Part shown: positions 17,211 to 37,148 of the stretch, one piece after another
Layout: each line of letters starts with the position of its first letter
How positions within the stretch are numbered: the first letter of the stretch is position 1
NCBI GenBank assembly: GCA_016208875.1
Contig: JACQXD010000061.1
Coordinates: forward strand, 1-38,356
DNA: 38,356 nucleotides
Direction: 5' to 3'
Source of the DNA: Nitrospirota bacterium
GTDB taxonomy: Bacteria; Nitrospirota; Thermodesulfovibrionia; Thermodesulfovibrionales; UBA1546
Program-made: the position numbers and the translations under genes
Notes under the pieces: model-generated
Database searches by the model: none
What the model was told of the DNA's origin: nothing
The model's input: the letters and a program-made list of their open reading frames with translations, nothing else

Positions 17211-17366
17211 TGTCAGTGACTTTTATTCGTTCAAATATTATACTCGGCTCAGATATTTTAAAACAAGCAGATAGGAAATAATTTTCCTCATCAATAAGAT
17301 TTTTTGTATTTGTTTTATATCTCTATTGCCCATCATCAAATTACTTTTTAACGGTCGCTATTTTCT
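17211..17366 (-). repeat. R repeat, copy 1 (upstream of nuoN)
   Basis: On the minus strand it encodes MMGNRDIKQIQKILLMRKI, then a hydrophobic stretch SYLLVLKYLSRV, and then stops. Compared with copy 2 the changes are conservative (R/K, L/I, V/L, T/S), which suggests past selection on a peptide. A GTCAGTGAC word marks the far end. TATAAT in its decayed part may act as the nuoN promoter. Confidence 0.65.
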
Positions 17367-17369
17367 ATC

Positions 17370-17747
17370 CTATTCCTTTCTCTTTTTGAATTTTAATAGA
17401 GCTTTAAACAACAGTGCCTCAATAATGTATAAAGGAATAAGTGGATACAAAAATGATTCAATTATTAATGACAAGTCTTTAGCTTTTTCCTTACCAGTGT
17501 CAGTGACAGTGTCAGTGTTTGAATCCCAACTCACTGTCAACTGCGTATCACCGGGTGTTACTACTAAACCTGTCGGTGCATCAGGCAATATCATCCCCTC
17601 CCACCACTCGTCTAAAACAACAGTGTCAGTGCAAGTGTCAGTGATGGCTCTTATTCTGCTGAGATATTTCAAGAGCAGCAGATAGGTAACAAGCCTTCTC
17701 ATCACTAAGATTTTCTGTAATTGCCTTATGTCTCTATTGCCCATCAT
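17370..17747 (-). pseudogene. R-peptide fused to a partial Fn3 domain (broken Rhs module start)
   Basis: The frame begins with the R peptide (MMGNRDIRQLQKILVMRRLV...YLLLLKYLSR), runs through TDTCTDT, then into the first half of an Fn3 domain (PDAPTGLVVTPGDTQLTVSW). It ends in an unrelated hydrophobic tail (FLYPLIPLYIIEALL). In the module at 19799 the second half of the same kind of Fn3 domain follows the R peptide directly, so this looks like the left-over start of another module whose Rhs and toxin parts were lost. It lies between the lipoprotein at 17786 and R copy 1. Confidence 0.5.
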
Positions 17748-17780
17748 CTATTTATTTTCCAACGGTCTCTATTTTTTACC
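17621..17780 (-). repeat. R repeat, copy 2
   Basis: It starts a few bases after the stop of the lipoprotein gene at 17786 and reads AATAGAGACCGTTGGAAAAT, then ATGATGGGCAATAGAGACAT and on to TGTCAGTG words. It encodes MMGNRDIRQLQKILVMRRLV and a hydrophobic stretch. Closest relative in the window: copy 4 at 37 kb. Confidence 0.7.
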
Positions 17781-17785
17781 GTCGA

Positions 17786-18892
17786 TTATTTTCCCCCGTA
17801 ACTAATTTCCCTTCTAGGGTCAATATATGGAATAACGGTTTCAAATTTTCCTGTTTCAAATTCCGCAACTTTAAGTGTATACATTGGTTTTGGCCCTACC
17901 AATGGACTATTGTTTTTTGTAGCTTTAAGTTCAGTACCTTCAGTTGGTAACCCCCAATAGAATACTGTACTGCGAGTTAAATGTAACGGACCTAACCATA
18001 TAATCCCTGGGGGATAAACAGGTTTTATAATGGCTTCATTTAAGTAAAATATAATCCAATTATTGTCATGATCACCCATCATAATTGCATCTCCGTCTTC
18101 TGAAACAATAGGTCTCCAGCCAATAAATAGATTTTTTACATTACCGGTTTCAACATCAAGAATTGATACGGTCGGAACACGGGGCCATTTAAGATTTGAT
18201 TGCCCGTATCTTTTATTAGGGCTATCCTTTGTGAGATAGAGTTTATTAGCAACATCCTGATTAAGCAAATCAACAAAGGCAAGATGTTTACCATCAGGAA
18301 ACCAACTTAACCCAACATCCAATGCCCTACGTTCAATAGATAATTTTTTTTTCGTTTTAATGTCCCAAATTTCAAGGGTCCCGTATTTGAGTAAAACATC
18401 TGGATCACGAAGTTGAACACTGGAAGTATTCGTAACTAAAGCTATATATCCGTTTACTGGTGAAAGAGCAAGATAATCTCCAGCAGCATCACCCCATAAC
18501 ACATCCCCTTTTCTCTCAAAAATTGTTGATACAGTATCATTATTCATTTCGTAAATCTTCAATAAGTGCCTTTTGTTCTCCATATGGTTTTCTATTATGG
18601 CAATATGACCATTTATGTCCGGACCACTAACAGAATGAACAAGGCCCGAGGATTCATCGGGCTTACGAATAAATTTTTCTTTCTTCGATGTCAATGAAAT
18701 ACTGACAAGGCCACCCACGGGTTTGTCGAAAACTAAAGTTCCATTCAAATCTTTAGAAATTCCCTTTGTTTCAGGCCCTGGAATTGTCTCAAAATTCGGT
18801 TGGCAAGATACAAAACTTAGCACAATCAATAAAGTGAATAAAGCTATCTTGGTTATTATTTTTATTACAAGTTTCATTGTATATTCATTCAA
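17786..18892 (-). CDS. Beta-propeller-like lipoprotein, putative immunity protein for the PLA2 toxin
   Basis: A 368-aa lipoprotein (hydrophobic start, lipobox LSFVSC). The mature part has repeated beta-rich units with propeller-like phrases (GLSWFPDGKHLAFVDLLNQ; PTVSILDVETGNVKNLFIG), resembling TolB/WD-like blades. It starts 13 bases after the phospholipase-type Rhs toxin gene, and the R repeat follows its stop. In Rhs and other polymorphic toxin loci the gene right after the toxin is normally its immunity gene. An envelope-anchored protein would suit a membrane-attacking phospholipase. The role is inferred from position only. Confidence 0.6.
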   Translation of the reverse strand: MNEYTMKLVIKIITKIALFTLLIVLSFVSCQPNFETIPGPETKGISKDLNGTLVFDKPVGGLVSISLTSKKEKFIRKPDESSGLVHSVSGPDINGHIAIIENHMENKRHLLKIYEMNNDTVSTIFERKGDVLWGDAAGDYLALSPVNGYIALVTNTSSVQLRDPDVLLKYGTLEIWDIKTKKKLSIERRALDVGLSWFPDGKHLAFVDLLNQDVANKLYLTKDSPNKRYGQSNLKWPRVPTVSILDVETGNVKNLFIGWRPIVSEDGDAIMMGDHDNNWIIFYLNEAIIKPVYPPGIIWLGPLHLTRSTVFYWGLPTEGTELKATKNNSPLVGPKPMYTLKVAEFETGKFETVIPYIDPRREISYGGK

Positions 18893-18905
18893 CTAAAGCT
18901 CAAAA

Positions 18906-19799
18906 TCAATTGTGATTATTGATCATCCTAAAAAGAATCTGATCTAAACCTACGTCTCTTAAGCAATTGCAAAGTATTCTATCACACTCCTTAACACCAC
19001 ACTTATTCCGATTATTCCAAGCTGCTCCTAATTTCTGATAACAATTATCGTGGTTCATACAGCAGGTATCAAGCTCATCTATCGGATCTCCAGGTTTATT
19101 ACCTGGCCCACAATAATTACCATGAATCGTTAGCCCTTTTGGATCGATTTCATTCACCGGATTATTTCCGACATAGATAAAAGGATTAAGCTTTAATGGA
19201 GAAGATAGTAAACTCTCAAGAGAAGAACTAAAAGACGAACTTTTACACGAAGCTACTTTTGTAGGCGGCCCATTCGCCGGATGCAATATTGGATCGAATT
19301 CAATATATCTGCCCACTTCTGCCATGTAATCCCTAAACCCGTTCTGGCTTAAGCCCGTCTCTATATCGTAAAACTGTCCAGGGAATCCCAAATGATTTGT
19401 AATGCTCCCACTAACTAAAGTCCGTTCCCCGAAAGGCAACAGATCGCCTTCCCAAACTATAGTCCCGCTACCGTTGGTCATGAGTATGGGGGTACCAATG
19501 TGGTCAACATGGATGAAGTACGTCTCTTCGATGTCTGCATAAGCAGTTACAGAGATGTAATAAGTCGTGCCATTAGTCAATCCTGTAATCGTGTAACTGG
19601 TTACATCTCCAACATCTGTTGAATCCATATAATTCCCGCTCTCTGTCCCCCAGTAGACCTTGTACCCATCAATACCAGTGTCAGTGACAGTGTCAGTGTC
19701 AGTAACAGCTTTTAGATATTTCAGAACAAACAGATAGGCAATGAGTTGCCGAAGAAGCAAGATTTGTCTGAGTTGTCTTATGTCGTTATATTTCATCAT
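18906..19799 (-). CDS. Orphan Rhs C-terminal module with phospholipase A2-like toxin
   Basis: The 297-aa product starts with the R peptide (MMKYNDIRQLRQILLLRQ), then half an Fn3 domain (DGYKVYWGTESGNY ... TNGTTYYISVTAYAD), then the Rhs core end (HIGTPILMTN, LPFGER, GQFYDIETGL, GRYIEFDP, YVGNNPVNEIDPKGL). The variable C-terminus has YCGPGNKPGDPIDELDTCCM followed by NHDNCYQ. The D-x-CC-x-x-HD-x-CY pattern and the YCGPG calcium loop are the secretory phospholipase A2 signature with the catalytic His-Asp pair. A complete Rhs protein would be over 1000 residues, so this is a 5'-truncated toxin reservoir module. A 34-residue Ser-rich insertion sits in the core. Confidence 0.82.
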   Translation of the reverse strand: MMKYNDIRQLRQILLLRQLIAYLFVLKYLKAVTDTDTVTDTGIDGYKVYWGTESGNYMDSTDVGDVTSYTITGLTNGTTYYISVTAYADIEETYFIHVDHIGTPILMTNGSGTIVWEGDLLPFGERTLVSGSITNHLGFPGQFYDIETGLSQNGFRDYMAEVGRYIEFDPILHPANGPPTKVASCKSSSFSSSLESLLSSPLKLNPFIYVGNNPVNEIDPKGLTIHGNYCGPGNKPGDPIDELDTCCMNHDNCYQKLGAAWNNRNKCGVKECDRILCNCLRDVGLDQILFRMINNHN

Positions 19800-19832
19800 C
19801 GACTTATTTTCTAATGGTCTCTGATATTTTCT
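19676..19832 (-). repeat. R repeat, copy 3
   Basis: It begins one or two bases after the stop of the gene ending at 19833 (AGAGACCATTAGAAAATAAG), encodes MMKYNDIRQLRQILLLRQLI and a hydrophobic stretch, and ends in TCACTGACACTGACACTG words. Here the peptide is read directly into the Fn3-Rhs-PLA2 frame. Confidence 0.7.
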
Positions 19833-20591
19833 CTATTTGGGAATACCCGGCACTACTACATCTCCCCTTTTAACATCCTTCCGAAAAATTTCTTCTTCCA
19901 TTGAATATTCTCCCTCGCTACTAACCGTCTCTTTAACTCTTAATATCACAGCTTTCCCTAATGGAGTATCAAAGTTTTTTGACCCTGGCCACACTGTACG
20001 TAAGAGGAAACGTTTAATTTCAAAAAAACGACTGCTCTTTTCTATCTGTAAGCCGCTAAGATTATTTTTTCCAAAAAATTCAGGCATAGTACCACCGGGT
20101 ATGCCGTGCCAGTCGTCCCTGGGTATACCGTGCTTTTTCAGACGCTTTTCCCAGTCTTTGTCTAATCTTTTTTTGTCCTGTTTATAAATTTCAACCATGA
20201 TTTCGGGCCTAAAAAGAAAATTTGTTGAATTACTGGTGCGAAGACGTACAAACTCTTTGGCCTTCTCTTTAGAATCAATATTTACATAGCCATGCAGATC
20301 ACTCAATGAGTTTATTCTTTTTAATATTGACTTACCTTTTATCAAGTATAGTCTTACATTCATTTCATAAGGAATCGCTATGGCAGCAGGCATGTCAGGA
20401 TGTTTTTCCGGTCGTTTCTCCAGCACATATCCTTTTTTTAGAAAAGAAGTGTGAATAGTTATCCCTGTAAAATCACCTTTTGAATAGTTAATCCCTTCCA
20501 ATAGCTCATAGTCGTCATAACCAAACTCATTTGCCATTGCCAGATATCCTCCTAAAAAGATAAAAAATATTAGTAAGAAAGACTTGAGCAT
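19833..20591 (-). CDS. Exported protein, putative immunity protein for the HExxH Rhs toxin
   Basis: A 252-aa protein with a signal peptide (MLKSFLLIFFIFLGGYLAMA) and a soluble mature part with many charged residues. I recognise no family. Features include a KKHGIPRDDWHGIPGG stretch and the ending GDVVVPGIPK. It begins 10 bases after the stop of the Rhs/HExxH toxin gene, and R copy 3 follows it. The same toxin, exported protein, R repeat order recurs at 36-37 kb. That supports an immunity role acting in the periplasm, but only by position. Confidence 0.6.
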   Translation of the reverse strand: MLKSFLLIFFIFLGGYLAMANEFGYDDYELLEGINYSKGDFTGITIHTSFLKKGYVLEKRPEKHPDMPAAIAIPYEMNVRLYLIKGKSILKRINSLSDLHGYVNIDSKEKAKEFVRLRTSNSTNFLFRPEIMVEIYKQDKKRLDKDWEKRLKKHGIPRDDWHGIPGGTMPEFFGKNNLSGLQIEKSSRFFEIKRFLLRTVWPGSKNFDTPLGKAVILRVKETVSSEGEYSMEEEIFRKDVKRGDVVVPGIPK

Positions 20592-20601
20592 ATTTTACTC
20601 C

Positions 20602-21216
20602 TTACTTACAAAATCTCTTTATTTGTGCCTCATCGCTGTCAAGATTAGCCTGTAAATCGCTATTTTCATCGCAGCACTTAGAATTTTTTAGGGCTGCTTT
20701 AGTGCATTCCAGATCAGCTTTGTAAGCTTTACATTCGCTTTGCTCTATTTCCTTAATATATACTTGTGTGCCAGCTGGTTTTCCAGCACAAACTGACTGA
20801 CTTGCACAATCATTCTTATGAGATGTCTCATGGACTTGACAACAATTCTTCAAACAAGGTCCTTTCTTATTGCACCAGCCTAATTGAACCGTGATGCTGC
20901 CAGCCCCATCACAGACAATTGTTGCGTTATCGGGGTCTGCTTTTTGGCCCGTTGTGTAACAGGAATAAAGGCCAAGCGGATCGGTAAAGGATAACGGATT
21001 CCCCGCTGCATATAAGTAGGGGGGTTCAGGTTTTTTCTTGCATGTTGACGGATCCTTTTCTAAATATCTCCCGATCTCCGGCATATAATCTCTGTGCCAG
21101 TTGTAATGCAACCCCGTCTCCGCATCATAATATTGCCCCGGGAAACGTAGGTTATTAGTGACCGTGCTGGTTATCGAATACTCCTCACCGAATGGCAAAA
21201 ATTCTCCCTCCCACAC
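20602..21216 (-). CDS. Orphan Rhs C-terminal module with HExxH metalloprotease-like toxin
   Basis: The Rhs core is recognisable (LPFGEEYS, RFPGQYYDAETGLHYNW, GRYLEKDPSTC, LYAAGNPLSFTDPLGL). The frame is open upstream of 21216 through RYDHLGTPIFITDKEGD to about 21290, without a good start. The C-terminal 120 residues are Cys-rich and hold CCQVHETSHKNDC, an HExxH zinc motif, and EIEQSECKAYKADLEC, where a Glu could be the third ligand. A zinc-peptidase toxin is the best guess. It was joined out of frame to a lipoprotein start at 21237-21554, so expression may need recombination into a full-length rhs gene. Confidence 0.72.
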   Translation of the reverse strand: MWEGEFLPFGEEYSITSTVTNNLRFPGQYYDAETGLHYNWHRDYMPEIGRYLEKDPSTCKKKPEPPYLYAAGNPLSFTDPLGLYSCYTTGQKADPDNATIVCDGAGSITVQLGWCNKKGPCLKNCCQVHETSHKNDCASQSVCAGKPAGTQVYIKEIEQSECKAYKADLECTKAALKNSKCCDENSDLQANLDSDEAQIKRFCK

Positions 21217-21236
21217 GACATCTCCCTCCTTATCCG

Positions 21237-21554
21237 TTATGAATATCGGCGTGCCGAGATGATCGTAACGCTTTTCGTCTGTGAAAAACCTGATACAGGG
21301 TTGTTATTGGTATCGAGGAGGGTAACGGTTAATGTGTACACATTTGCAGGGACTTTGGCTGCCAGGCGGTCTGAGTTATTATTTTCAGCACGGTAATCCC
21401 ATTGGACAGTGGCTGCGATAGAACCTGTGCCGCTGCTGCCTGTGTTTGAACCACTGCCGCAGGCAGAGAGAAAAAAGATGCATGATATAAGTAAAGATGC
21501 ACGATACATGATGAACGATACACGACGAATGATTGCCTTGTTTAAACGAGCCAT
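21237..21554 (-). pseudogene. Truncated lipoprotein gene fused out of frame to the Rhs module
   Basis: The N-terminus carries a lipoprotein signal (RASLLISCIFFLSACGSGSN), then beta-rich sequence typical of Big/Fn3-type surface proteins (ANVYTLTVTLLDTNNNPVSG). After GFSQTKS the frame runs into the Rhs sequence in the wrong phase and stops. The Rhs reading (RYDHLGTP) is in the next frame. This looks like a deletion or recombination junction near 21285. The upstream part of the frame (before MYRASLL) overlaps a short ACGATACATGATGAACG-type repeat, so the true start is probably the internal Met. Confidence 0.55.
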
Positions 21555-21600
21555 TTAATCCTCCTGCCATAACTCAAATTACAAATCTTCCATAATTTAA

Positions 21601-21776
21601 AAAATCTCCCCTCGCCCCTCTTTGCCAAAGAGGGGAAAACGGTCTGTCACACCCATTGATATATCTCTTGATAACATATCCTATCCCTATCATACAAGGG
21701 GAACACACCCCTTAATCCCCTCTTGATAGAGGGGAATTTTCCCTCCCTTTGGCAAAGGGAGGTTAGGTGGGATTTT
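21601..21776. mobile_element. MITE-like element, copy A (176 bp)
   Basis: Imperfect 30-bp terminal inverted repeats (AAAATCTCCCCTCGCCCCTC at one end, the complement of GGTTAGGTGGGATTTT at the other) enclose a core with ATATCTCTTGATAACATATC. The same core and ends recur at 22937-23118. No coding capacity. It separates the Gly-rich protein gene from the truncated lipoprotein. Confidence 0.7.
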
Positions 21777-21824
21777 ATAATAAATGTCTTCATATTTATG
21801 ACTTAATTAATAACTGAAAGTACC

Positions 21825-22130
21825 TCAGTAATTCACATTAATAGTCCCTGTGGTTGAAGGACTTGGGGTGGTACTACCCCCGCTATCTCCTCCGCCACCG
21901 CCGCCTGCCAGCGCAACGGCTGCCCCGCCTGCTACCAATAGTCCAAGCACTACCCAATACCACTTTAGTCCACCGCCTTTGCCGGTCTCTGTAGTCTCTT
22001 TTTCTATTATTATTGCAGGGGTCGCCTTTATCTCCGGTGAATATGGAGTCACCTTCTCAGAGGCCAATACAGTCTTCGGTATCATCATCAGCAACAGACA
22101 TATCATTATTAATGCCATGAAACTCTTCAT
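21825..22130 (-). CDS. Small exported Gly-rich membrane protein
   Basis: A 101-aa product with a signal peptide (MKSFMALIMICLLLMMIPKT ... VLAS), a short polar part, one hydrophobic helix (LKWYWVVLGLLVAGGAAVAL) and a Gly/Ser/Thr-rich tail (GGGGGGDSGGST). It starts 2 bases after the DUF4384 gene, so the two are co-translated, and it closes the caspase-DUF4384 operon. Similar tailpieces occur in envelope operons of other bacteria. Function unknown; perhaps a membrane anchor or assembly partner of the two upstream products. Confidence 0.65.
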   Translation of the reverse strand: MKSFMALIMICLLLMMIPKTVLASEKVTPYSPEIKATPAIIIEKETTETGKGGGLKWYWVVLGLLVAGGAAVALAGGGGGGDSGGSTTPSPSTTGTINVNY

Positions 22131-22132
22131 CC

Positions 22133-23011
22133 TTACCTCCTCGATGCTACTTCATAGAGCATCATTTCTTCAGCCTTTTCTTGAGACGGTATTGAGACTA
22201 TCGCCCTGTAAAACTCAGGGATCGTAATATCTTCTTTCTTGCCGAGCAATGCAGCAAAGTCAAAGGGCTGTCTTGTTGCAACTATGATAAGGCATTCCGT
22301 TGCCCGTTTTTTTTCAGGTGCTATATCCATTTGAAGCCCGAATCCTTCGGGAGGAAACACGAACTCCTCATTTTCTTTTAAAGGGCTCATGGGCAGCCTG
22401 TCCATAGGTGCTATTATCTTTATCCGGTCATCCGCAGTCAGATTGAATATGTTTATGTAACAATCACGCGTGGCCTTTATCTTTATCTTTGCCTCTTCCC
22501 CGCGACTGAAGACCTCTTTATTTAGGTGTGCAGTTATCTTGAAGTAAGGGTCTTTTTCGCCAGCTCCGGCAACACATGCCTTTAATCTTACCCTGTAGCT
22601 AACGAGCGGAAAACTCTCTTTTGTCTTCTGGGATGATTCAAGTTCCCATGCCTCGATCTTTTCATCCGTTATGTATCCCTCTGTGAGGGTCTGCACTATA
22701 TCTGCCATGAGCTTGTAGTCCTTTACGAATGAACCGCCATTGATCTTGACGCCTGTCCTGCCCTCTATGGCAGATAGCCTTGCCCTGTTTATTGCAAGCT
22801 GTTTCATTTCATCAGGGGTCAGATTTTGTTCGAATGCCTCTCCTACGGCATTGATCCATTGACAGTCGGCAGCGGCAGATGATGAAAAAATGAGAACGGC
22901 TAACACAATATAAAATGCAAGGAAGAGTTTTATCTTAAAATCTCCCCTAACCCCTTTGCCAAAGAGGAGAACACGGTCTATCACACCCATGAATATATCT
23001 CTTGATAACAT
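22133..23011 (-). CDS. Exported DUF4384 domain protein
   Basis: A 292-aa protein. After a signal peptide (IKLFLAFYIVLAVLIFSSSA, AAADC) comes a FlgO/LPP20-like region (NAVGEAFEQNLTPDEMKQLA). A DUF4384 domain follows (DPYFKITAHLNKEVFSRGEE, then DCYINIFNLTADDRIKII). DUF4384 often accompanies or is fused to caspase-like peptidases in bacterial envelope proteins. The first 22 or so codons (MLSRDIFMGVIDRVLLFGKG) lie inside MITE copy B, so the element supplies the start codon. It sits between the caspase gene and the Gly-rich membrane gene. Confidence 0.72.
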   Translation of the reverse strand: MLSRDIFMGVIDRVLLFGKGVRGDFKIKLFLAFYIVLAVLIFSSSAAADCQWINAVGEAFEQNLTPDEMKQLAINRARLSAIEGRTGVKINGGSFVKDYKLMADIVQTLTEGYITDEKIEAWELESSQKTKESFPLVSYRVRLKACVAGAGEKDPYFKITAHLNKEVFSRGEEAKIKIKATRDCYINIFNLTADDRIKIIAPMDRLPMSPLKENEEFVFPPEGFGLQMDIAPEKKRATECLIIVATRQPFDFAALLGKKEDITIPEFYRAIVSIPSQEKAEEMMLYEVASRR

Positions 23012-23118
23012 ATCCTATCCCTATCATACAAGGGGAAGACACACCCCTCACCCCTCTTGATAGAGGGGAATATGAAGAATATCTCCCCCTTTGGAAAAGG
23101 GGGATGGAGGGGGATTTT
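22937..23118. mobile_element. MITE-like element, copy B (182 bp)
   Basis: It has the same terminal inverted repeats (AAAATCTCCCC ... GGGGGATTTT) and the same core (TATCTCTTGATAACATATCC; ATCATACAAGGGGAA) as copy A. It lies between the caspase-like gene and the DUF4384 gene and contributes the DUF4384 start codon, so its insertion reshaped the 5' end of that gene. Confidence 0.7.
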
Positions 23119-23131
23119 CCGAAGATTATTT

Positions 23132-24596: not shown

Positions 24597-24602
24597 AAAC
24601 CA

Positions 24603-29656: not shown

Positions 29657-31330
29657 TCATCCCTTATCACTCAAAAGTTTCTTAATCTCCTGCTGGAAAG
29701 CACTATAACGATTATAGCGACTCCTTATTTTATTAAAGAAGGCTTGTGCCTCGGTAGACCTACCCAGTAGATTTAATGCCTCTACACATCCAACAAGAAG
29801 TAACGCCGCCTTATCATAACTTCCACGATATTTATTCGATACTATGACATCCACTCTTTTCTCGATGGCTGAGTTTGCCCATTTGATATGCCGTACCCTA
29901 TCTTCTTCGGAAATGTCCTTTGAGAGGATATCTTTTTCAACAACTTCCTCGAATCTCTTATTCTGCTCATCCTCATATATCTCATTACCTATCCAAATCT
30001 TCCTGATAGCTGAATTGCTTTTTAAGGTCATCCCTCTTACAGAAGAAATGACTAAGAATGGTACAGCCACGGCCTGTGAACTATTAGCCCCTGACCATCC
30101 TAAAGGTTTCCCTTTGCTTGCCACATCCCACATCTTTTCATAGTCTTCAGTCAGGATATAAGCTTGAACCAATAGTTCCTCAGGATCGCTTGTGAATGAT
30201 TGTTTCCCCTGGTATTTTCCCAAGAAGTCAACAACTTCTTCCATTACATTTAACCGGCCTAATTCCATAGCACTTTCTCTGAGAGATAGTAGCCGTTTTA
30301 TATTGGGAGAAGAAAAGAATGCCTCCTTATGCATCTCAAAGACTAAATTTCCATCATTGATTTTTCCGGCTGATTGGGCTGCGAGATCAGATATCTCTGC
30401 ACGAATACGGGTTTGAAGAGGAATCACTTCAAGACTCTGTTGATATGCCTCAACAGCCTCTCTATTTTTTCCAGCTTCTTGTAGTTTGCTTATCCATACA
30501 AGATATACCTTGTCGAGCTTATTCCCGTGTTCTTTCGCAAGCATTGACAGTCCTCCTAAGCCTTCGAGTTCAAAGATAATGGAGCACAACATATCGAGAT
30601 TCTTCACATAACCCAATGCTCTCATATTTTGAGCAAGGACACTCTCAAGTAAAATCCCCTTCATGTCTTCAAGAAACTGCTCCCAGCCCTCTGGTTTGGC
30701 TGGAATCGCATCTTCAATTGTTTTTAAATCAAAATCGGAAGAGCCGATGTACCTGATGTCATTAATCTCTTCAAAAATAACCTTTGCCCTTTCCTTTTTA
30801 TGAGTAGTTTCGTATAAGGCTCTGAGGTACCTCGTCCTTGCCTCATCCAAATCTGTCTCGACCATCTCTGTTGACGAAAGCTGCCCGGGGAAATGGCCTG
30901 TTTCTTCACCCATATGAAATGCCTTTAATAATCTCCCATAGGCCTGGCAAGCAAATTCCATATTACCCGATAAAAATACATCATCTGTTCTATCAAATAA
31001 TTCATCCATCTCATCCACCCAGGATTCATCGCCCCACTCACGCTCATCATGAATCTTATCATCCCAACCCCAACCATGAGAGTATTTTCCATCTTCAATA
31101 CGTTTCACAAACTCATCAATATCAGTTAATAGGCTAGTATCATCCACTACAACTTGAGCCTTTTCTTTGGGTTTTAGCTCGGCTAAAAAGAATTCCCTCT
31201 CGTCTGGCTTGAGGTTTTTTGCCTTCATCAAAAGAATAGTCCTTATATCCTCTTTAGAAAGCCCCTCTATTTGTTTTTCCACTTCCTTCAAAAATGTCCC
31301 TAATCCCATCTTTTCTTTATTCATATTCAA
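29657..31330 (-). CDS. Uncharacterised 557-aa helical-repeat protein
   Basis: I do not recognise the family. The N-terminus has FLKEVEKQIEGLSKEDIRTI, then an acidic, Trp-rich stretch (SHGWGWDDKIHDEREWGDES), and the rest is regularly helical (LVWISKLQEAGKNREAVEAY is TPR-like; AALLLVGCVEALNLLGRSTE near the end). This suggests a superhelical scaffold. It lies 43 bases upstream of the SNF2 helicase gene on the same strand. A scaffold or sensor role beside the helicase is an inference. Confidence 0.6.
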   Translation of the reverse strand: MNMNKEKMGLGTFLKEVEKQIEGLSKEDIRTILLMKAKNLKPDEREFFLAELKPKEKAQVVVDDTSLLTDIDEFVKRIEDGKYSHGWGWDDKIHDEREWGDESWVDEMDELFDRTDDVFLSGNMEFACQAYGRLLKAFHMGEETGHFPGQLSSTEMVETDLDEARTRYLRALYETTHKKERAKVIFEEINDIRYIGSSDFDLKTIEDAIPAKPEGWEQFLEDMKGILLESVLAQNMRALGYVKNLDMLCSIIFELEGLGGLSMLAKEHGNKLDKVYLVWISKLQEAGKNREAVEAYQQSLEVIPLQTRIRAEISDLAAQSAGKINDGNLVFEMHKEAFFSSPNIKRLLSLRESAMELGRLNVMEEVVDFLGKYQGKQSFTSDPEELLVQAYILTEDYEKMWDVASKGKPLGWSGANSSQAVAVPFLVISSVRGMTLKSNSAIRKIWIGNEIYEDEQNKRFEEVVEKDILSKDISEEDRVRHIKWANSAIEKRVDVIVSNKYRGSYDKAALLLVGCVEALNLLGRSTEAQAFFNKIRSRYNRYSAFQQEIKKLLSDKG

Positions 31331-31411
31331 TCCTCACTCATAGTTTTTGTCTCGTGCCACTACTAAACATCTCTACGTGAGATTTCTTTTAATAACTCCT
31401 CAGCCTCAACT

Positions 31412-31783
31412 TTAGGCCAATGGTAGTGTTGGTTTTTCATTCCACACCTCGTCCCTGACAAATATATGTATCTCTTTATTTTCCTGTAAAGCAATTTTTG
31501 TTTCGTACCATGTAATACTAATATCCTCTTTTGGATACTTATTACCTGCATAAGTTCCGCCATATCTTTTGTCAATAATCAAAAGATATATATCGCATTC
31601 TTTGACCGCATCTATGCATGTATCATGTGCATGAAGACCATGTTTTTTAGGAAAATCAGGTGATTCATTCCAAATAGGCATATATCCCCATTCTTTGAGT
31701 GCATTTGCTAATTCAGATCTTAAATCCTTAAGGTCAAAACATGTAGAACTGATGAAGACCTTTTTACCATCCCTCTTAGTCAT
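31412..31783 (-). CDS. DUF4062 domain protein, possibly truncated
   Basis: The 123-aa product is essentially one DUF4062 domain: KKVFISSTCFDLKDLRSELA, then DAVKECDIYLLIIDKRYGGT and ITWYETKIALQENKEIHIFV. DUF4062 is TIR-like in fold and often forms the N-terminus of larger proteins, including NLR-like defence proteins. Here the frame ends soon after the domain (WNEKPTLPLA). A second frame with a plausible tail (HWPKVEAEELLKEISRRDV) continues past it, so a frameshift or deletion may have removed the rest. A GAGGATAG site precedes the ATG. It may be the first gene of the SNF2 group. Confidence 0.72.
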   Translation of the reverse strand: MTKRDGKKVFISSTCFDLKDLRSELANALKEWGYMPIWNESPDFPKKHGLHAHDTCIDAVKECDIYLLIIDKRYGGTYAGNKYPKEDISITWYETKIALQENKEIHIFVRDEVWNEKPTLPLA

Positions 31784-31894
31784 TGAACTATCCTCTTAAG
31801 ACAAAGAAAATTTTAGTAAGGTCTATCCCTATCAAATTCACTTGCTCCCAACTCGCTTCAATTATACAAAACCTGATTCCCTTTCCCGTCTTGC

Positions 31895-33181
31895 TTATTC
31901 AAGAAGCGATGGTTTATCAACCTCCATATTTTCATCAAGGGCAATGGCTTTCTGTTTTCTTAAATCATCTATCTTCTTCAAAGGTCTATCGAGCATATTG
32001 CTCCTTGTTGTAACAAGGGAATCATACTCTTTTTTTGCATCGTCAATCCTTTTGCCCATTGTTTCAAATTTTTCTTTATATAAACCCCATTGTTTTGAGA
32101 ATTCCCCCAAGAGCTTGAGTATCTCTGATGCTGTCCTTTCAAGGTTGAAGTTTGCAACTGCCTGCCTTATAACAGCAAGCACCGCATAGAGCGTGAATGG
32201 TGAACATAGAATAACTTTTTGTTTCAGGGCCTCATCCATTATTGTGGGATCAGCCTCGTTTATAAAACTGTAAACCTGTTCATTCGGGATAAAGACAATA
32301 ACATAGTCAACCGTGTTGTCGGCTGTATCTATGTAAGAACGGTTTGTCACACCTTTAATCATTATCTTTGTATTTTTGAGCAATTCCTCTTTAAATCTTT
32401 TTTTGTCATGTTCTGTCTGTGCATCCAGGTAGTTCTGATAATTTTCGAGCGGGAACTTAACATCCATGTTTATCTTCAGGCTGTTAGGCAAGAAAAATGT
32501 GTAATCAGGCCTGCCTGATGAGCCTTCAAGCGTTTTTTGTTTTATGTAATTTATGCCTTCTACGAGTCCAACGAGTCTAAGGATGTCTTCTGCCATGCGT
32601 TCGCCCCATTCGCCTCTCTTTTTCGAACTTGCAAGGGCATGCTTCAGGTGTTCGGTTGTATCCTTTAGTTTTGATGTTATATCCGCATGATGTTCAACAA
32701 GCGTAGATATCTTAACGCTTCCCTTTTCAACATCTGCTAATTTCTGCTGCATCTCAGAGAGCGTTTTTGCTATAGTCTCAACGCTCTTATCGATAAGATC
32801 TTTTTTACCCTCAAGCTCTTTTTTCCCCTCGACGGTCTGTGATTTAAGTTTTTCTTCGGCGAGTTTTAGGAACTCGGCAGAGTTTTTGGAAAGGGCATCA
32901 AGAGAGATGGACCCCAATTTGTCTGTAATCCATGTCTCTATTGTTTGAAGGTTTTTTTCTGCCTCCTGGTATTTTGCATCCATCGAGGCCCGCGCCTGTT
33001 TCTCATTGGTAAGTTCGTCTCTGATTTTTGCAAGCTCGACGTCTTTCTCTGAAATCTGCTGTTTAAGCACATCATTCACAGCCTCAGAGCTTTTTGCCCT
33101 TGAAGATGCAATGAGCCAGGTAAGCCAGGCAACAATTCCTCCGATTACTACGCCTAAAATAATATATGCTACCATTCCCAT
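31895..33181 (-). CDS. rmuC: DNA recombination protein RmuC
   Basis: A 428-aa RmuC. One N-terminal membrane helix (VAYIILGVVIGGIVAWLTWL) is followed by a long coiled coil (residues 30-190). The conserved nuclease-like domain has SKKRGEWGERMAEDILRLVG, GRPDYTFFLPNSLKINMDVK, FPLENYQNYLDA and NTVDYVIVFIPNEQVYSFI. The Asp and Lys of the PD-(D/E)XK-like core (the Asp in PDYTFFLP, then MDVKFPL) are present. RmuC limits inversions at short inverted repeats in E. coli, notable in a repeat-rich genome. It lies 19 bases after the DUF4325-like gene. Confidence 0.92.
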   Translation of the reverse strand: MGMVAYIILGVVIGGIVAWLTWLIASSRAKSSEAVNDVLKQQISEKDVELAKIRDELTNEKQARASMDAKYQEAEKNLQTIETWITDKLGSISLDALSKNSAEFLKLAEEKLKSQTVEGKKELEGKKDLIDKSVETIAKTLSEMQQKLADVEKGSVKISTLVEHHADITSKLKDTTEHLKHALASSKKRGEWGERMAEDILRLVGLVEGINYIKQKTLEGSSGRPDYTFFLPNSLKINMDVKFPLENYQNYLDAQTEHDKKRFKEELLKNTKIMIKGVTNRSYIDTADNTVDYVIVFIPNEQVYSFINEADPTIMDEALKQKVILCSPFTLYAVLAVIRQAVANFNLERTASEILKLLGEFSKQWGLYKEKFETMGKRIDDAKKEYDSLVTTRSNMLDRPLKKIDDLRKQKAIALDENMEVDKPSLLE

Positions 33182-33199
33182 TGTAATCTCCTTATCCTC

Positions 33200-33760
33200 T
33201 TAAATCTTTTCATACACCCAAACCCTTCCACCATCTCTTACTTCATCCGTCCTTTTAACAAGGCGTTTCTTGTGAAGGTTCAACAGCCTTGTGCCGCTTG
33301 TATTGGCCGGAAGCTTTAATGTAGAGGAAAGGTCTCCTGCCGTAATCCTCCCTTTCTTAGCTATAAGATTTAGAGTCTCCTGCAGATAGTTATTAAGATT
33401 CCCGATGAGGATTTTCCTGTCATCTCTCATCTTTGCAGTGACAGCGAGGTCTTTCCTCTCAAGAGCGACCTCTATGTTTTCCTTCTGGTTTTCGTTAAGC
33501 CCAATAAGAATAATATATTTGTCTCCATATTCACTACCGATCAGACGGGAGATAAGCTTTGCAATGATCTCATCAGCACAGGAATAATCTATTACCCCTA
33601 TCTTTGAGAAATCGAGAGCAATGATTTCCCCATCCTTTTCCTTCGATAGGTCTCTCTCAATCCGCTCCCTTATCACCTGGCCGGATGGCCGGGTTACCAG
33701 ATCGGTAGAACCATTCTTCAGTTCCTCCTTAAGGAGATTATAAAGATTGTAAAGCGTCAT
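33200..33760 (-). CDS. STAS-like (DUF4325-type) / winged-helix protein
   Basis: A 186-aa protein with two parts. Residues 20-110 contain RPSGQVIRERIERDLSKEKD, then IALDFSKIGVIDYSCADEII, a STAS/DUF4325-type motif. The C-terminal 60 residues form a winged helix (NLIAKKGRITAGDLSSTLKL, then GTRLLNLHKKRLVKRTDEVR). STAS-like modules switch by binding partners or by phosphorylation, so a regulatory role is likely. It is co-transcribed with rmuC. Target genes are unknown. Confidence 0.7.
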   Translation of the reverse strand: MTLYNLYNLLKEELKNGSTDLVTRPSGQVIRERIERDLSKEKDGEIIALDFSKIGVIDYSCADEIIAKLISRLIGSEYGDKYIILIGLNENQKENIEVALERKDLAVTAKMRDDRKILIGNLNNYLQETLNLIAKKGRITAGDLSSTLKLPANTSGTRLLNLHKKRLVKRTDEVRDGGRVWVYEKI

Positions 33761-33807
33761 TTATTTTATGCTTCTTTTGACCTTTTCCGCCTTCCGCTCA
33801 ACAACAC

Positions 33808-33993
33808 TTACGAATAAATCAGATTCCATTCGTCTTCCATATCCTGATAAACCAGGCAGTAAGTCATCTGCTTGCATTCGGGGCAGAAGCCATTGCAGAT
33901 GATTTCAATGTAGTTAACATTGCTTGTAGCAAACTGTTTCTGTCGGTTGAAGCATTGCTTCTGAGTATCAGCCTTATCTTTAAAATAGGACAT
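33808..33993 (-). CDS. Small Cys-containing protein
   Basis: The 61-aa product has a basic N-terminus and a Cys cluster (ICNGFCPECKQMTYC), probably a zinc site. A GGGAGG ribosome-binding site lies 6 bases before the ATG. TTGACA (34052-34057) and TTCAAT (34029-34034) with a 17-base gap form its promoter, overlapped by a perfect palindrome. A dedicated regulated promoter suggests a stress- or signal-responsive role. No family recognised. Confidence 0.6.
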   Translation of the reverse strand: MSYFKDKADTQKQCFNRQKQFATSNVNYIEIICNGFCPECKQMTYCLVYQDMEDEWNLIYS

Positions 33994-34015
33994 AAAAAAC
34001 CTCCCTCATCAAATC

Positions 34016-34034
34016 TTCAATTGATTCAATTGAA
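34016..34034 (-). promoter_or_regulatory. Palindromic operator over the -10 of the 61-aa gene
   Basis: TTCAATTG-N3-CAATTGAA is a perfect inverted repeat of 8 bases per arm. It covers the TTCAAT -10 hexamer, whose TTGACA -35 lies 17 bases upstream. A dimeric repressor binding here would block the promoter. The cognate regulator is unknown. Confidence 0.6.
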
Positions 34035-34148
34035 GCATAAATTAAGAGTTTTGTCAAGTGCCCAAATAGAAATTCCCAAAATAAAAGGACGGACAGAACG
34101 ATATTTTTTATTCATGATTTGATATATAATATCACGAAGAACTTTGAA

Positions 34149-34225
34149 GCCCCCTTAGCTCAGTCGGATAGAGCACAGGTTTCCTAAACCTGGTGCCGCA
34201 GGTTCGATTCCTGCAGGGGGCACCA
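34149..34225 (+). tRNA. tRNA-Arg(CCT)
   Basis: Acceptor GCCCCCT/AGGGGGC, discriminator A and an encoded CCA. The anticodon loop TTCCTAA (CCT) is closed by the stem CAGGT/ACCTG, and the T-arm reads GGTTCGATTCC. A TATAAT at 34125-34130 is a likely promoter element. Confidence 0.95.
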
Positions 34226-34282
34226 TACTTTTCTCTGAAATATCGAGAAGTTATCTTAAGCAGTCATAAAAAGTAAACTTTA

Positions 34283-35500
34283 ATGATCGTCGGAGGCGGG
34301 CCTGCACCGGGCATCAACGGTGTTATAAGTGCAGCCACGATCGAGGCCGTAAAGAGAGGCAAAAAGGTAATCGGTATAGTCGGTGGGTTCAAGAGTCTCT
34401 TTTCAGGGGACAGGAAAAAGATAATCGAGCTTGCGATAGACGATGTCAGCAAGATACATATCACCGGCGGTTCGATCCTGAGAACCTCAAGGGATTTTCC
34501 CTCAAAGGTTAAGGAAGGCTTTAAAACCCTGATGTCTACGCTTAAATCCGTAAATGTCAGATACCTGATCACTATAGGCGGAGAAGGAACACTTTACATG
34601 GCAAGGTGGATAGAAAAAGAGTCAAAGGGCGGCATATCTGTCGTGCATGTCCCGAAGACTATAGACAATGACCTTTTGCTCCCAGCAGGTATGCCGACAT
34701 TCGGCTACGAGACAGCAAGGCACTGGGGTGTCGAGCTTGTCGAGAATATTATGGAGGACGCAAGGACAACGGGCAGATGGTATTTTGTAACAACGATGGG
34801 TAGATATACGGGCCATCTTGCCCTCGGGATAGGAAAGGCGGCAGGTGCAACGATAACCCTTATCCCGGAAGAGTTCAGGGAAGAGAAAGTTTCTGCAAAG
34901 AAAGTCTCCGACATACTTGAAGGCTCTATCATAAAAAGACTTTCGACAGGCAAGGATTATGGAGTCGCCGTTCTTGCAGAGGGGATTGCAAATAAGTTCG
35001 ACAAAAAAGAACTGATCCGGTATGAAGTCATAGAAAAGGATGAGACAGGAAGGGTAAGACTTTCCGATATCCAGCTTGGAAGGGTTATGAAAACGATTGC
35101 GAATAGAAATCTCGAAAGCCGTGGGATAAAGGTAACGATTGTTGATAAGAATATAGGATACGAACTTAGGGCTGCAAACCCGATACCATTTGATGCTGAA
35201 TATACCCGGAATCTCGGATATGGTGCTGTGAGATTCCTTCTAATGGGAGGTACGGGCGCTATGATTGTTTTCTACGAAGGAAAGTTGAAATCCGTACCCT
35301 TTGTAGAGATGTTCGAGCCTGATTCGGATAAGACAAAGATAAGATATGTTGATACGTCATCGGAGGCATATCTTGTCGGAAGGGAATATATGATCAGGCT
35401 GGAGAAAAATGATTTTAAACCCGAAAATATAAAAAGATTAGCCGTTACTGCATCCATGAAAGTGGAAGAGTTTAAAAAGAGATTTTCATATCTTGTGTAA
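34283..35500 (+). CDS. pfkA: 6-phosphofructokinase, PPi/ATP-type (unusual phosphoryl-donor motif)
   Basis: A 405-aa PFK family member. It has GGGPAPGINGVISAA at the start, ITIGGEGTLYMARW, HVPKTIDNDLLLPAGMPTFG (TIDND holds the catalytic Asp), then TTMGRYTGHLALGIGKAAGA and IPEEF. PPi enzymes typically have GGDD with PKTIDND, ATP enzymes GGDG with PGTIDND. Here the donor loop is GGEG while the Lys of PKTIDND is present, a mixed signature, and the Asp of GGD is Glu. Donor specificity cannot be told from sequence. In-frame TAA upstream fixes the ATG start, which leaves a shorter N-terminus than usual. Confidence 0.88.
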   Translation: MIVGGGPAPGINGVISAATIEAVKRGKKVIGIVGGFKSLFSGDRKKIIELAIDDVSKIHITGGSILRTSRDFPSKVKEGFKTLMSTLKSVNVRYLITIGGEGTLYMARWIEKESKGGISVVHVPKTIDNDLLLPAGMPTFGYETARHWGVELVENIMEDARTTGRWYFVTTMGRYTGHLALGIGKAAGATITLIPEEFREEKVSAKKVSDILEGSIIKRLSTGKDYGVAVLAEGIANKFDKKELIRYEVIEKDETGRVRLSDIQLGRVMKTIANRNLESRGIKVTIVDKNIGYELRAANPIPFDAEYTRNLGYGAVRFLLMGGTGAMIVFYEGKLKSVPFVEMFEPDSDKTKIRYVDTSSEAYLVGREYMIRLEKNDFKPENIKRLAVTASMKVEEFKKRFSYLV

Positions 35501-35524
35501 GATTTTAAATCGGGATTTGGATAG

Positions 35525-36442
35525 AGACACTTTTGGGGACGCATTTTTCTGATAACCTGGAATGCTAATCAAGAACCCGTAGATGGATATAAGGTTTATT
35601 GGGGAACAGAATCAGGGAATTATACAAATTCAATAGATGTCGGAGATGTGAATAGCTATACGATTACAGGGCTTACGAATGGAACGACTTATTATGTTTC
35701 AGTTACGGCATATGCAGATATCAAAAGAACTCTTTATTATCATACCGATCATCTTGGAACGCCGGTGATGATGACGGATGGTAGTGGAACTATAGTATGG
35801 GAAAGTGAACTACAACCTTTTGGAGAGAGGTATTCGGTCAAAGGGAATATAACGAATAATTTAGGATTCACTGGTCAGTTCTATGATACGGAAACGGGAA
35901 CTAATTATAATTATTTTAGAGACTACAACCCTATTACTGGACGATATATTGAGCGTGATCCTATTGGATCTGCTGGTGGAATAAATTCATATATTTATGC
36001 AAATAATCCAGTAAACTGGATTGATCGTTGGGGGTTATATGAGTGCACCTACGATATAAGCAGCCACGATATGACATGTACTCCAAATAATTCAGGAAAC
36101 TTGACATTTAATAGTAGCAGTTTTGTTTCTGGAAATAATTTAAGTTCTCTCTGTTGTGATTGCCAAGATAATCCCGATAGGGATTATGTCCCTAACCATG
36201 GCCCAATTCCGGATGGAGATTATACTATTGAGGCACAAAAGACCAATTCAAGTCGAAGAAATTTAACACCTGATCCGAGTAATAATATGCATGGGCGTAG
36301 TGGCTTTCAAATTCATGGTTGTAGCAATAGAGATACTTGTTCAAATGGTTGTATTGGTGCAACCACAAATGCGACAAGGGATGAACTCAATCGGCTATTG
36401 TCTCTTGAAGAAGGTAATAATACACTGCATGTTCAACCATAA
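35525..36442 (+). CDS. Orphan Rhs C-terminal module with Tlde1-like (L,D-transpeptidase fold) toxin
   Basis: The frame is open from a stop at 35522. It has half an Fn3 domain (DGYKVYWGTESGNY ... TNGTTYYVSVTAYAD), then the Rhs end (HLGTPVMMTDGSGTIVWES, PFGERYS, GQFYDTETGTNYNY, GRYIERDPIG, YANNPVNWIDRWGL). There is no good start codon before GTG at 35648, so it is 5'-truncated. The toxin part shows GPIPDGDYTIEAQ and MHGRSGFQIHGCSN, then TCSNGCIGATT. The IHG...SxGC(I) pattern with catalytic His and Cys is that of Tlde1/DUF2778 peptidoglycan-targeting effectors. It lies just downstream of the PFK gene on the same strand. Confidence 0.8.
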   Translation, partial: RHFWGRIFLITWNANQEPVDGYKVYWGTESGNYTNSIDVGDVNSYTITGLTNGTTYYVSVTAYADIKRTLYYHTDHLGTPVMMTDGSGTIVWESELQPFGERYSVKGNITNNLGFTGQFYDTETGTNYNYFRDYNPITGRYIERDPIGSAGGINSYIYANNPVNWIDRWGLYECTYDISSHDMTCTPNNSGNLTFNSSSFVSGNNLSSLCCDCQDNPDRDYVPNHGPIPDGDYTIEAQKTNSSRRNLTPDPSNNMHGRSGFQIHGCSNRDTCSNGCIGATTNATRDELNRLLSLEEGNNTLHVQP

Positions 36443-36472
36443 TAGCAAAGACAAAATTATTTTGTGAAGAAT

Positions 36473-37033
36473 ATGAAACCTATTCGCCATATTTTGTTTG
36501 TAATTTTTTTTGGATATTTATTATTTTCTGCTGATGTTTTGCTTGCAAATAAAAATGAGACTATCAGCTATTATAAAAATCCTAAATCAATAATGAACAA
36601 GATTTCTAACCGGGGATCGCATGCCATTGTTTCTGAACTATACTCTTGCCATGAGGCTTGGGATTTTGTTTTACAAAAAATTGCGACGGCTACAAAATCT
36701 TGGCTAAAAGTGGCTGTTGCACTTCATTCCGGTGCAGACGCGGGGACAAGTGAGATGTTAGCTTTATCGGTTGGGGAGGCACTTGAGAACTCACCAGAGG
36801 ATGTTTTTAGAATTGTTTTGAAAGAGTTTCAATTAGAATCAATTTGTGGCGGACCAGATATCGATGATGTCCGCTATAATAATTATGAACTTGCAATGAA
36901 GGCAATCAAACGAAGACAAGACCGCATTTCAACTCTTTCTAACCCTAAACTTAAAAATGTTGGTAAGAAATGTACGCAACTTTTAGAAAAATCAAAAGAT
37001 GGAATTGCGAGATTTTATGGAATTGGAGAGTAG
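36473..37033 (+). CDS. Exported protein, putative immunity for the Tlde1-like toxin
   Basis: I start at the ATG at 36473 (MKPIRHILFVIFFGYLLFSA), a clear signal peptide; a GTG at 36464 is possible. The mature 160 residues are helical (SHAIVSELYSCHEAWDFVLQ; AIKRRQDRISTLSNPKLKN) with three Cys that could pair in the periplasm. The gene follows the toxin by about 30 bases, and an R repeat follows it. Tlde1 works in the periplasm, so an exported immunity protein is expected. No family recognised; the role is from position. Confidence 0.6.
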   Translation: MKPIRHILFVIFFGYLLFSADVLLANKNETISYYKNPKSIMNKISNRGSHAIVSELYSCHEAWDFVLQKIATATKSWLKVAVALHSGADAGTSEMLALSVGEALENSPEDVFRIVLKEFQLESICGGPDIDDVRYNNYELAMKAIKRRQDRISTLSNPKLKNVGKKCTQLLEKSKDGIARFYGIGE

Positions 37034-37047
37034 ATGAACGAAATAGT

Positions 37048-37148
37048 AAAAATAGGGACATCGACCATTAAAAAATAAATAGATGATGGGCAATAGAGAC
37101 ATAAGACAATTACAGAAAATCTTAGAGATGAGAAGGCTTGTTACCTAT
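37048..37148 (+). repeat. R repeat, copy 4 (upstream of nuoE)
   Basis: It begins shortly after the stop of the exported immunity candidate (AATAGGGACATCGACCATTA), then encodes MMGNRDIRQLQKILEMRRLV and TYKREE before diverging. It is the opposite orientation to copies 1-3 at 17-20 kb. Copy 2 is the closest in sequence. Confidence 0.7.

What the first reader, a model, noticed from the sequence alone, without database searches (positions are those of the whole stretch)
17211..37148. Toxin-immunity modules all end in a repeat that encodes a conserved short peptide
Three Rhs toxin modules (PLA2, HExxH, Tlde1-like) are each followed by an exported or lipoprotein gene and then, within 2-30 bases, by the same ~150-bp R repeat. 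Copies differ mainly by conservative changes (R/K, L/I, V/L, T/S) in a ~30-aa peptide starting MMGNRDIRQLQKIL with a hydrophobic end. A fourth copy stands alone. The pattern suggests a module boundary used for cassette exchange, or a small protein linked to each module. I know of no such element described.
Basis: partly seen in the sequence, partly recalled or inferred. Interest (0 to 1): 0.82.

Follow-up and report, generated by a model that had tools for sequence, protein, structure and literature searches.

The report
Start peptide on orphan toxin fragments
In some uncultured bacteria, leftover pieces of toxin genes often begin with the same short protein-coding sequence, usually placed right after another gene and read straight on into the leftover piece, which suggests that these supposedly silent pieces are translated.

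Summary
The repeat is real: four copies in the window, six clear copies in the genome, 25 examined at rhs loci of ten Nitrospirota genomes (the window's included) and one contig titled Desulfobacterales. It encodes a ~30-residue peptide (MMxxRDIRQLQKILLMRRLxAYLLVLKYL) kept by selection, with no Pfam or NCBIfam match. It does follow another ORF closely (within 75 nt or overlapping in 20 of 25 copies), but it is also the start of what comes next: in 19 of the 20 copies with recognisable Rhs sequence downstream it supplies the start and reads in frame into a truncated ("orphan") rhs fragment, at eight or more different places of Rhs. Published orphan modules usually lack translation starts. Best reading: a start/leader peptide that keeps displaced toxin-immunity modules translated. 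Coding constraint, position and in-frame fusion are shown; expression, membrane role and mobility are inferred. Only 4 of 25 copies adjoin a motif shown to form the ends of a Y1 (IS200-like) transposon. The element is not universal: 72 of 81 rhs-bearing genomes of the class show no copy. A DNA-hairpin explanation was tested and not supported.

The parts
17241..17336 (-). R copy 1: complete 32-codon ORF MMGNRDIKQIQKILLMRKIISYLLVLKYLSRV followed by a stop; no Rhs sequence found after it
17652..17747 (-). R copy 2: first 32 codons of ORF 17370-17747, which continues in frame into an Rhs/FN3 fragment
17370..17747 (-). R-headed ORF, 125 aa, with an Rhs DEWWEGM/FN3 segment and a tail without a match
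17786..18892 (-). Lipoprotein-like ORF (weak beta-propeller hits) at the immunity position of the PLA2 module
   Evidence: role inferred from position
19704..19799 (-). R copy 3: first 32 codons of ORF 18906-19799
18906..19799 (-). R-headed orphan rhs: R + FN3 + Rhs core + phospholipase A2-like C-terminus
   Evidence: PF03527 37.4 bits; PF00068 30.5 bits, below its cut-off 32.1
19833..20591 (-). Exported-looking ORF at the immunity position of the HExxH module; stop 33 nt before the start of R copy 3
   Evidence: role inferred from position
20602..21216 (-). Orphan rhs core with an HETSH-containing C-terminus; not headed by R
   Evidence: Rhs core 80.7 bits
35648..36442 (+). Orphan rhs core with Tlde1 domain; not headed by R
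36464..37033 (+). Exported-looking ORF at the immunity position of the Tlde1 module; stop 49 nt before the start of R copy 4
   Evidence: role inferred from position
37083..37178 (+). R copy 4: matches R to codon 22 (37148), then unrelated codons to a stop after 37178
37159..37178 (+). AAGGTGACGGTTCTATTAAA, one mismatch to the ACGGTTCT-type motif found upstream of four other R copies; not itself shown to be a transposon end

Best explanation
R is a translated start cassette for displaced rhs toxin fragments. It gives a start codon and a conserved, basic and hydrophobic N-terminal peptide of about 28-32 residues shortly after the preceding (usually immunity-like) ORF, and continues in frame into whatever truncated rhs piece (YD repeats, FN3, core, C-terminal toxin) was left there. 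When a new module is inserted ahead of an old one, the old rhs piece loses its start; R puts one back, by translational coupling to the upstream stop codon, so that ribosomes run through the orphan piece towards its own immunity gene. Shown: conserved coding sequence, location at module joins, in-frame fusion at many different rhs places. Inferred: that the fused ORFs are translated in the cell, that coupling is the route, that the benefit is continued production of the old immunity protein and/or orphan toxin, and that the peptide itself has a role (membrane association or holding the toxin).
For: Coding constraint: 10 non-overlapping pairs from 20 copies show 85 amino-acid-changing codons against 114 +/- 5 simulated (0 of 1000 as low), with 43 second-position and 80 third-position changes; median dN/dS 0.27 over 40 of 45 pairs of ten copies, and 0.15 (copies 1/2) and 0.27 (copies 1/3) for window copies found by DNA repeat search alone, with 2/3 undefined. 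A DNA search of the whole own genome found five matches, each overlapping a coding copy already counted. In-frame reading into Rhs: 19 of the 20 copies with recognisable Rhs sequence downstream; 41/3^20, about 1e-8, if they were independent. Varied joins: blastp puts the first Rhs residue at different parts of longer Rhs proteins, at least eight by my reading. Position: upstream ORF stop within 75 nt or overlapping in 20 of 25 copies (the upstream ORFs at G4c and G169 are doubtful, and that of window copy 1 is an R-headed ORF). In-frame ATG at the start in 24 of 25; SD-like sequence in 7 of 25, against 9 of 15 control genes, which fits coupling. Recurrence: two divergent R-like heads on orphan rhs ORFs in G074 were the two best of 1693 ORFs with a model not trained on them, though weak (E 0.0077 and 0.23). 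Contrast: orphan rhs/cdi modules are reported usually to lack translation initiation signals (passages of PMC3150448 and PMC3967940).
Against: No expression data. Most copies outside the window were found with a protein profile, which favours conserved amino acids and open frames, so part of the constraint signal is selection of the sample. Two of the four window copies (17241, 37083) precede no Rhs sequence, and two window modules (HExxH, Tlde1) are not headed by R. On the contig titled Desulfobacterales R is out of frame with the rhs piece. Several R-headed ORFs stop early (R2, R5, G1b, G4c, G122, G188). 72 of 81 rhs-bearing genomes of the class have no R at E <= 1e-5, and in the own genome 8 of 13 Rhs-core matches lie on contigs without R. 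Keeping translation going does not by itself explain why the amino-acid sequence is kept. Copies are related, so the in-frame count is not 20 independent events. The SD comparison is small.
Confidence: 0.52

Rival explanations
1. R is a short mobile element, a non-autonomous relative of the Y1/REP-associated transposons, that inserts at module ends; its peptide frame is a passenger or serves the element.
For: GGGGACAGGCTACTTT flanks Y1 transposase genes as inverted ends (Y1_Tnp E 2.4e-18 for the one tested). A GGGACAGGCT motif lies within 60 nt upstream of 4 of 25 R copies; two other motifs, ACGGTTCT (4) and GGGTCAAACCT (4), hold the same place in 8 more. In the loci scanned on both strands these motifs have the orientation of R except for the pair around a transposase gene in L044 (14 loci, L127 not among them). 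Weak R-like copies lie away from rhs, two of them near transposase-like ORFs. R occurs in a record titled as another phylum.
Against: The two other motifs form no inverted pair in the loci held, so they are not shown to be transposon ends. No inverted motif was found within 400 nt 3' of R in any of 25 copies. The 4 window copies have no motif upstream. Genome-wide pattern hits are at R arrays in 3 of 6 (G001), 1 of 3 (G004), 0 of 3 (G000) and 0 of 4 (G003) cases. Random insertion would not read in frame into Rhs in 19 of 20 cases nor keep amino acids.
Confidence: 0.17
2. R is the relic of the N-terminus (signal or anchor region) of one ancestral short rhs gene; in-frame deletions and unequal recombination among YD repeats later fused it to different rhs places.
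For: The end of R (LKYLxRI) resembles the YD-repeat motif (YDxLxRI) and several joins align there. In one G004 copy R runs into a signal-peptide-like stretch and in one G125 copy into the N-terminal part of an Rhs-type protein (my reading).
Against: R heads different modules several times in one array and follows different ORFs, which needs repeated duplication. The two long rhs ORFs of the own genome whose starts are on the fetched contigs (L022 2605-7611, L024 2045-5269) do not begin with R.
Confidence: 0.2
3. R is a DNA-level module boundary used for cassette exchange, by homologous recombination between R copies or by a folded single-strand site.
For: Several R copies per array; two window copies 94% alike over 86 nt, 19 kb apart in opposite orientation; location at module joins.
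Against: No conserved fold (0 pairs) and no covariation excess in the best hairpin I saw (90-168 of 500 shuffles as good on the five measures). Neighbouring window copies are 65-80% alike, poor for recombination. Selection acts on amino acids.
Confidence: 0.1
4. R is an independent small protein co-expressed with each immunity gene; the fusion to rhs is secondary.
For: Window copy 1 is a complete 32-codon ORF; the first L106 copy ends soon after R, its stop overlapping a TTG of the rhs frame (TTGA).
Against: Stand-alone versions are the minority; 19 of 20 with Rhs downstream are in-frame fusions.
Confidence: 0.1

Closest known systems
Orphan rhs-CT/rhsI and cdiA-CT/cdiI modules (passages seen in PMC3150448 and PMC3967940)
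   Same: Truncated toxin-gene fragments with immunity genes in tandem downstream of other modules
   Different: Those usually lack translation initiation signals; here many orphans share a conserved start peptide
Orphan Rhs of Salmonella expressed from internal promoters and a CTG start as type II toxin-antitoxin pairs (passages seen in PMC7043789)
   Same: Orphan toxin translated inside the cell from a new start
   Different: The start lies downstream of an internal rhs promoter; the passages seen describe no added conserved peptide after an immunity gene
Neisseria mafB-CT cassettes with an initiation codon (passages seen in PMC4287609)
   Same: Some alternative C-terminal cassettes are potentially expressed
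   Different: The initiation codon belongs to the cassette's own BIL sequence; different toxin architecture
Y1_Tnp (PF01797) transposons (REP-associated type; type name recalled)
   Same: Their terminal motif lies upstream of 4 of 25 R copies
   Different: R carries no transposase and no inverted end was seen after it
Vibrio T6SS immunity arrays formed by sequential displacement (passages seen in PMC5361080)
   Same: Old immunity genes kept after module displacement
   Different: Old effectors are replaced; no repeat peptide in the passages seen

Membership tests
Orphan rhs toxin/immunity module | Truncated rhs fragment retaining the Rhs core region and a variable C-terminus | tested here: met
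   TIGR03696 hits over the curated cut-off at 19131-19436, 20968-21198 and 35813-36037; ORF lengths
Orphan rhs toxin/immunity module | Followed by a cognate immunity gene | not testable with these tools
   An exported or lipoprotein-like ORF follows each in the window; cognate neutralisation cannot be tested here
Orphan rhs toxin/immunity module | Usually no translation initiation signal on the fragment (described as usual, not as required) | tested here: not met
   In-frame ATG in R in 24 of 25 copies; 19 of 20 with Rhs downstream run in frame into it
Y1-transposon-derived mobile element | Terminal motif next to the element | tested here: inconclusive
   Motif shown to be transposon ends upstream of 4 of 25 copies; two look-alike motifs, not shown to be ends, upstream of 8; none upstream of 13, the 4 window copies included
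Y1-transposon-derived mobile element | Paired inverted ends around the unit | tested here: not met
   No inverted motif within 400 nt downstream in 25 copies, exact motifs only
Structured DNA/RNA recombination site (attC-like, REP hairpin) | Conserved fold with compensatory changes | tested here: not met
   (13 copies)
Known protein family | Match to Pfam, NCBIfam or a solved chain | tested here: not met
   19 members: 0 Pfam and 0 NCBIfam families at E <= 1; one PDB chain at E 0.87. PHROGs and PADLOC not searched

The most novel reading that the evidence does not exclude
R is a dedicated, horizontally moving 'restart' cassette: delivered to module joins with Y1 (IS200-like) transposon ends, it re-arms displaced toxin fragments with a start codon and a functional membrane-directed peptide, so that old toxin-immunity pairs remain expressed, whether as addiction modules, as immunity reservoirs or as short alternative toxins.
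Probability: 0.15. Interest if true: 0.85.

Novelty: new variant of a known kind. Interest (0 to 1): 0.6.

Why it matters
Whether orphan toxin-immunity modules are silent stores or expressed genes is an open question in interbacterial competition. A conserved peptide under selection that repeatedly heads orphan rhs fragments in frame suggests they are expressed in these lineages, gives a simple marker to find such modules, and suggests how immunity to an abandoned toxin could be kept after module replacement.

Tried and rejected
Hairpin/REP-type structure: I noticed TAGGC-n5-GCCTA inside R in several copies; RNAalifold gave no pairs and pair counting no covariation excess, so dropped. Rfam on 17000-38356 gave one tRNA only.

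Named relatives through genome contigs: the peptide scan found 32 pattern matches, none confirmed.

More copies around the Desulfobacterales genome: only 8 genomes were available and the only hit was the genome itself. Mis-binning of that contig is not excluded.

Left out of the count of 25: a degenerate stub at L006 5368; R-like hits in G005, G122:C71 and G008 (not next to rhs); a G083 hit (my reading: a sensor-kinase-like ORF); marginal hits in G006, G086, G187 and G108 (E 0.008-0.02).

The codon test had one copy misaligned by a codon; one search replaces it. Hydrophobic moment of R (0.23-0.37 in six copies) did not settle membrane binding. Structure prediction was not run: a lone 30-residue helix would decide little.

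Changed on checking: I had written that 12 of 25 copies adjoin Y1-transposon ends. Only 4 have the motif that forms such ends; the 8 with two other motifs have no inverted pair in the loci held.
Full report
What was checked. The window lies on contig C24 of a 2.93 Mb draft genome. Its relatives include public Nitrospirae records: G004 contigs of 91,852 and 143,234 bases have the lengths of WPIF01000010.1 and WPIF01000008.1, and G122 C18 that of JAMCVZ010000070.1, with R in the same frames. G004 is listed as same family as the window's genome, so the window comes from a member of Nitrospirota. This is an inference from kinship labels.

The repeat. Repeat search finds the R family at 17241-17367, 17652-17778 and 19704-19830 and, on the other strand, at 37062-37148. 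A peptide profile finds six clear copies in the whole genome, four in the window and two on contig C167, plus a stub; all lie at rhs loci. A DNA search with one copy found five places, each overlapping a copy already counted, and no further one. The genome has 13 Rhs-core matches, 12 over the curated cut-off, on eight contigs; 8 of the 13 lie on contigs without R.

Relatives. The final 22-row profile (A6) matches 17 of 230 genomes of the class at E <= 0.02 and 11 at E <= 1e-5 (G000, G001, G003, G004, G005, G074, G122, G125, G169, G188, G192; G008 reaches 2.5e-5). The G005 copy is not beside rhs. G074 was found only after I read eight stretches of orphan rhs arrays from seven genomes that the earlier searches had listed no R for and saw R-like heads in one of them; with the 19-row model these two heads were the best two of 1693 ORFs but weak (E 0.0077 and 0.23). 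They are part of A6, so their strong scores are not independent. A phylum-wide search with the 19-row model (A5) matched 11 of 395 genomes at E <= 0.001, all listed as of the same class. Outside the phylum only two scans of genome contigs and eight genomes were looked at. The DNA pattern scan added a 6.4 kb contig titled Desulfobacterales with two copies; mis-binning cannot be excluded. Of 230 class genomes, 81 have an Rhs core at E <= 1e-8; 9 of the 11 R genomes are among them, and the other two (G122, G188) have rhs fragments next to R. So 72 of 81 rhs genomes have no R at E <= 1e-5: where it occurs the element sits at rhs loci, but it is not a general part of rhs loci.

Coding. Thirteen copies have no stop in the peptide frame and stops in both other forward frames. 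Median dN/dS is 0.27 over 40 of 45 pairs among ten copies; five pairs had undefined dS and several were saturated. A more cautious test on ten non-overlapping pairs from 20 copies counts 85 amino-acid-changing codons against 114 +/- 5 when the same number and kind of nucleotide changes are scattered without making stops (0 of 1000 as low); changes at codon positions 1/2/3 are 71/43/80 of 254 each. A caution: most copies outside the window were gathered with a protein profile, which favours conserved amino acids. The three longer window copies were found by DNA repeat search alone and give 0.15 (1/2) and 0.27 (1/3), with 2/3 undefined. The peptide is therefore kept as a protein sequence. It matches no Pfam or NCBIfam family at E <= 1 and no solved chain better than E 0.87.

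Anatomy of the join. For 25 rhs-associated copies (window 4, C167 2, G001 2, G003 1, G004 5, G074 2, G122 1, G125 3, G169 1, G188 1, G192 1, L106 2) looked for Rhs homology after codon 28 in all three frames. Twenty have it: 19 in the R frame without a stop in between, one (L106, first copy) in another frame. Five have none or only after a stop (window copies 17241 and 37083; G4a, G4d; second L106 copy at the contig end). Several fused ORFs stop early (R2, R5, G1b, G4c, G122, G188), and R6, G192 and G125b run to a contig end. The upstream ORF ends within 75 nt of the R start, or overlaps it, in 20 of 25; for G4c and G169 that ORF is doubtful, and for window copy 1 it is the R-headed ORF before it. 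That these ORFs are immunity genes is inferred from position. In several copies stop and start nearly touch: gap 0 in G1a, 2 in G125b and G74b, overlaps in G188 and G4b. In L106 the R stop codon overlaps a TTG of the rhs frame (TTGA), which would allow coupling, though this may be chance. An in-frame ATG starts 24 of 25; SD-like sequence precedes 7 of 25 against 9 of 15 ordinary window genes.

Where R joins rhs. Comparing R-headed ORFs with other Rhs proteins, homology begins at or just after R residue 29 in many, and corresponds to different parts of Rhs: a YD repeat LGRLIxETDP (two copies), LNRITEITD, the DEWWEGM segment, the FN3 domain (IDGYKV), YRLMQSxPTK, TYDNNGNL, GNRTSSTDANG, SYDxxGNR and others (the grouping is mine). 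The R end LKYLxRI resembles the YD-repeat motif itself, so recombination between R ends and YD repeats could shift the join in frame; this is inference.

Neighbouring motifs. GGGGACAGGCTACTTT occurs as an inverted pair around Y1 (IS200-like) transposase genes in G001, G003 and G004 (Pfam Y1_Tnp for the one tested). A GGGACAGGCT motif stands within 60 nt upstream of 4 of 25 R copies (R6, G1a, G1b, G4e). Two other motifs hold the same place: ACGGTTCT-type in 4 (R5, G4b, G125c, G188) and GGGTCAAACCT in 4 (G3, G4a and both L106 copies); I group them by look and place, but in the loci held they form no inverted pair, so they are not shown to be transposon ends. Thirteen copies, the four of the window included, have none. 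No inverted motif follows R within 400 nt in any copy. Genome-wide hits of the pattern GGGRACRGKYTNNTTT fall in R arrays in 3 of 6 cases in G001, 1 of 3 in G004, 0 of 3 in G000 and 0 of 4 in G003, with two hits of the reversed control pattern in G001 and none elsewhere. In the window a one-mismatch ACGGTTCT-type motif follows the truncated copy at 37159. Movement of R by a Y1 transposase is possible but weakly supported.

Reading. Known orphan rhs and cdi fragments are described as usually lacking translation initiation signals, while in E. [quoted passage not shown]). In Salmonella a reporter at an internal CTG start gave low orphan expression (passages of PMC7043789). Some Neisseria mafB-CT cassettes have initiation codons (passages of PMC4287609). 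Against that background a conserved peptide that repeatedly gives orphan rhs fragments a start, shortly after the preceding ORF, is best explained as a restart/leader element. Why its amino acids are kept is unknown; the hydrophobic, basic sequence suggests membrane association, untested. Expression and function remain unproven.

Literature searches. Eight searches of the open-access library were used: Rhs orphan/displaced modules, orphan toxin/recombination/repeat (42), Rhs with YD repeat and Nitrospirae (53), REP-associated tyrosine transposase with Rhs (61, no paper), polymorphic toxin/cassette/small peptide (62), polarity/translation coupling (65), RAYT with gene cassette (86) and leader peptide/start codon (87). 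In the titles and abstract starts listed I saw no such peptide; the lists were capped and most subscription papers are not held, so an earlier description cannot be excluded.

Noticed in passing
window 17495-17517, 17627-17643, 19676-19704: Hexamer arrays of the ACTGACACTG type (encoding TDT) sit at rhs joins; the genome has 34 matches with at most one mismatch, some overlapping, and none for the reversed pattern.
   Followed up: partly
window 21617-21737 and 22951-23071: A 121-bp direct repeat, 89% identical, upstream of the HExxH module.
   Followed up: no
L045 1085-2785 (-): An R-headed rhs ORF in G003 contains the stretch VIPAEAGIQ, which I recall as the translation of a widespread dispersed repeat, read in frame inside the gene.
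   Followed up: no
L083 5440, L082 1466, L047 610: Weak R-like sequences away from rhs; the first two lie near transposase-like ORFs (my reading), and the one in L082 runs into a stretch resembling part of an ORF upstream of rhs in G000 C228.
   Followed up: partly
L125 3485-4558, L024 7993-8925, L121: Other orphan rhs ORFs start differently: with signal-peptide-like N-termini (L125, and L024 of the own genome) or with unrelated short leads (L121).
   Followed up: partly
window 15746-17176 (-): The R array ends about 60 nt upstream of a gene that looks like NADH dehydrogenase subunit N (my reading) on the same strand, so the array may sit within or next to that operon.
   Followed up: no
L106 1111-1221: In the contig titled Desulfobacterales the R reading frame ends in a TGA that overlaps a TTG of the rhs frame (TTGA), a possible coupled restart.
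   Followed up: partly
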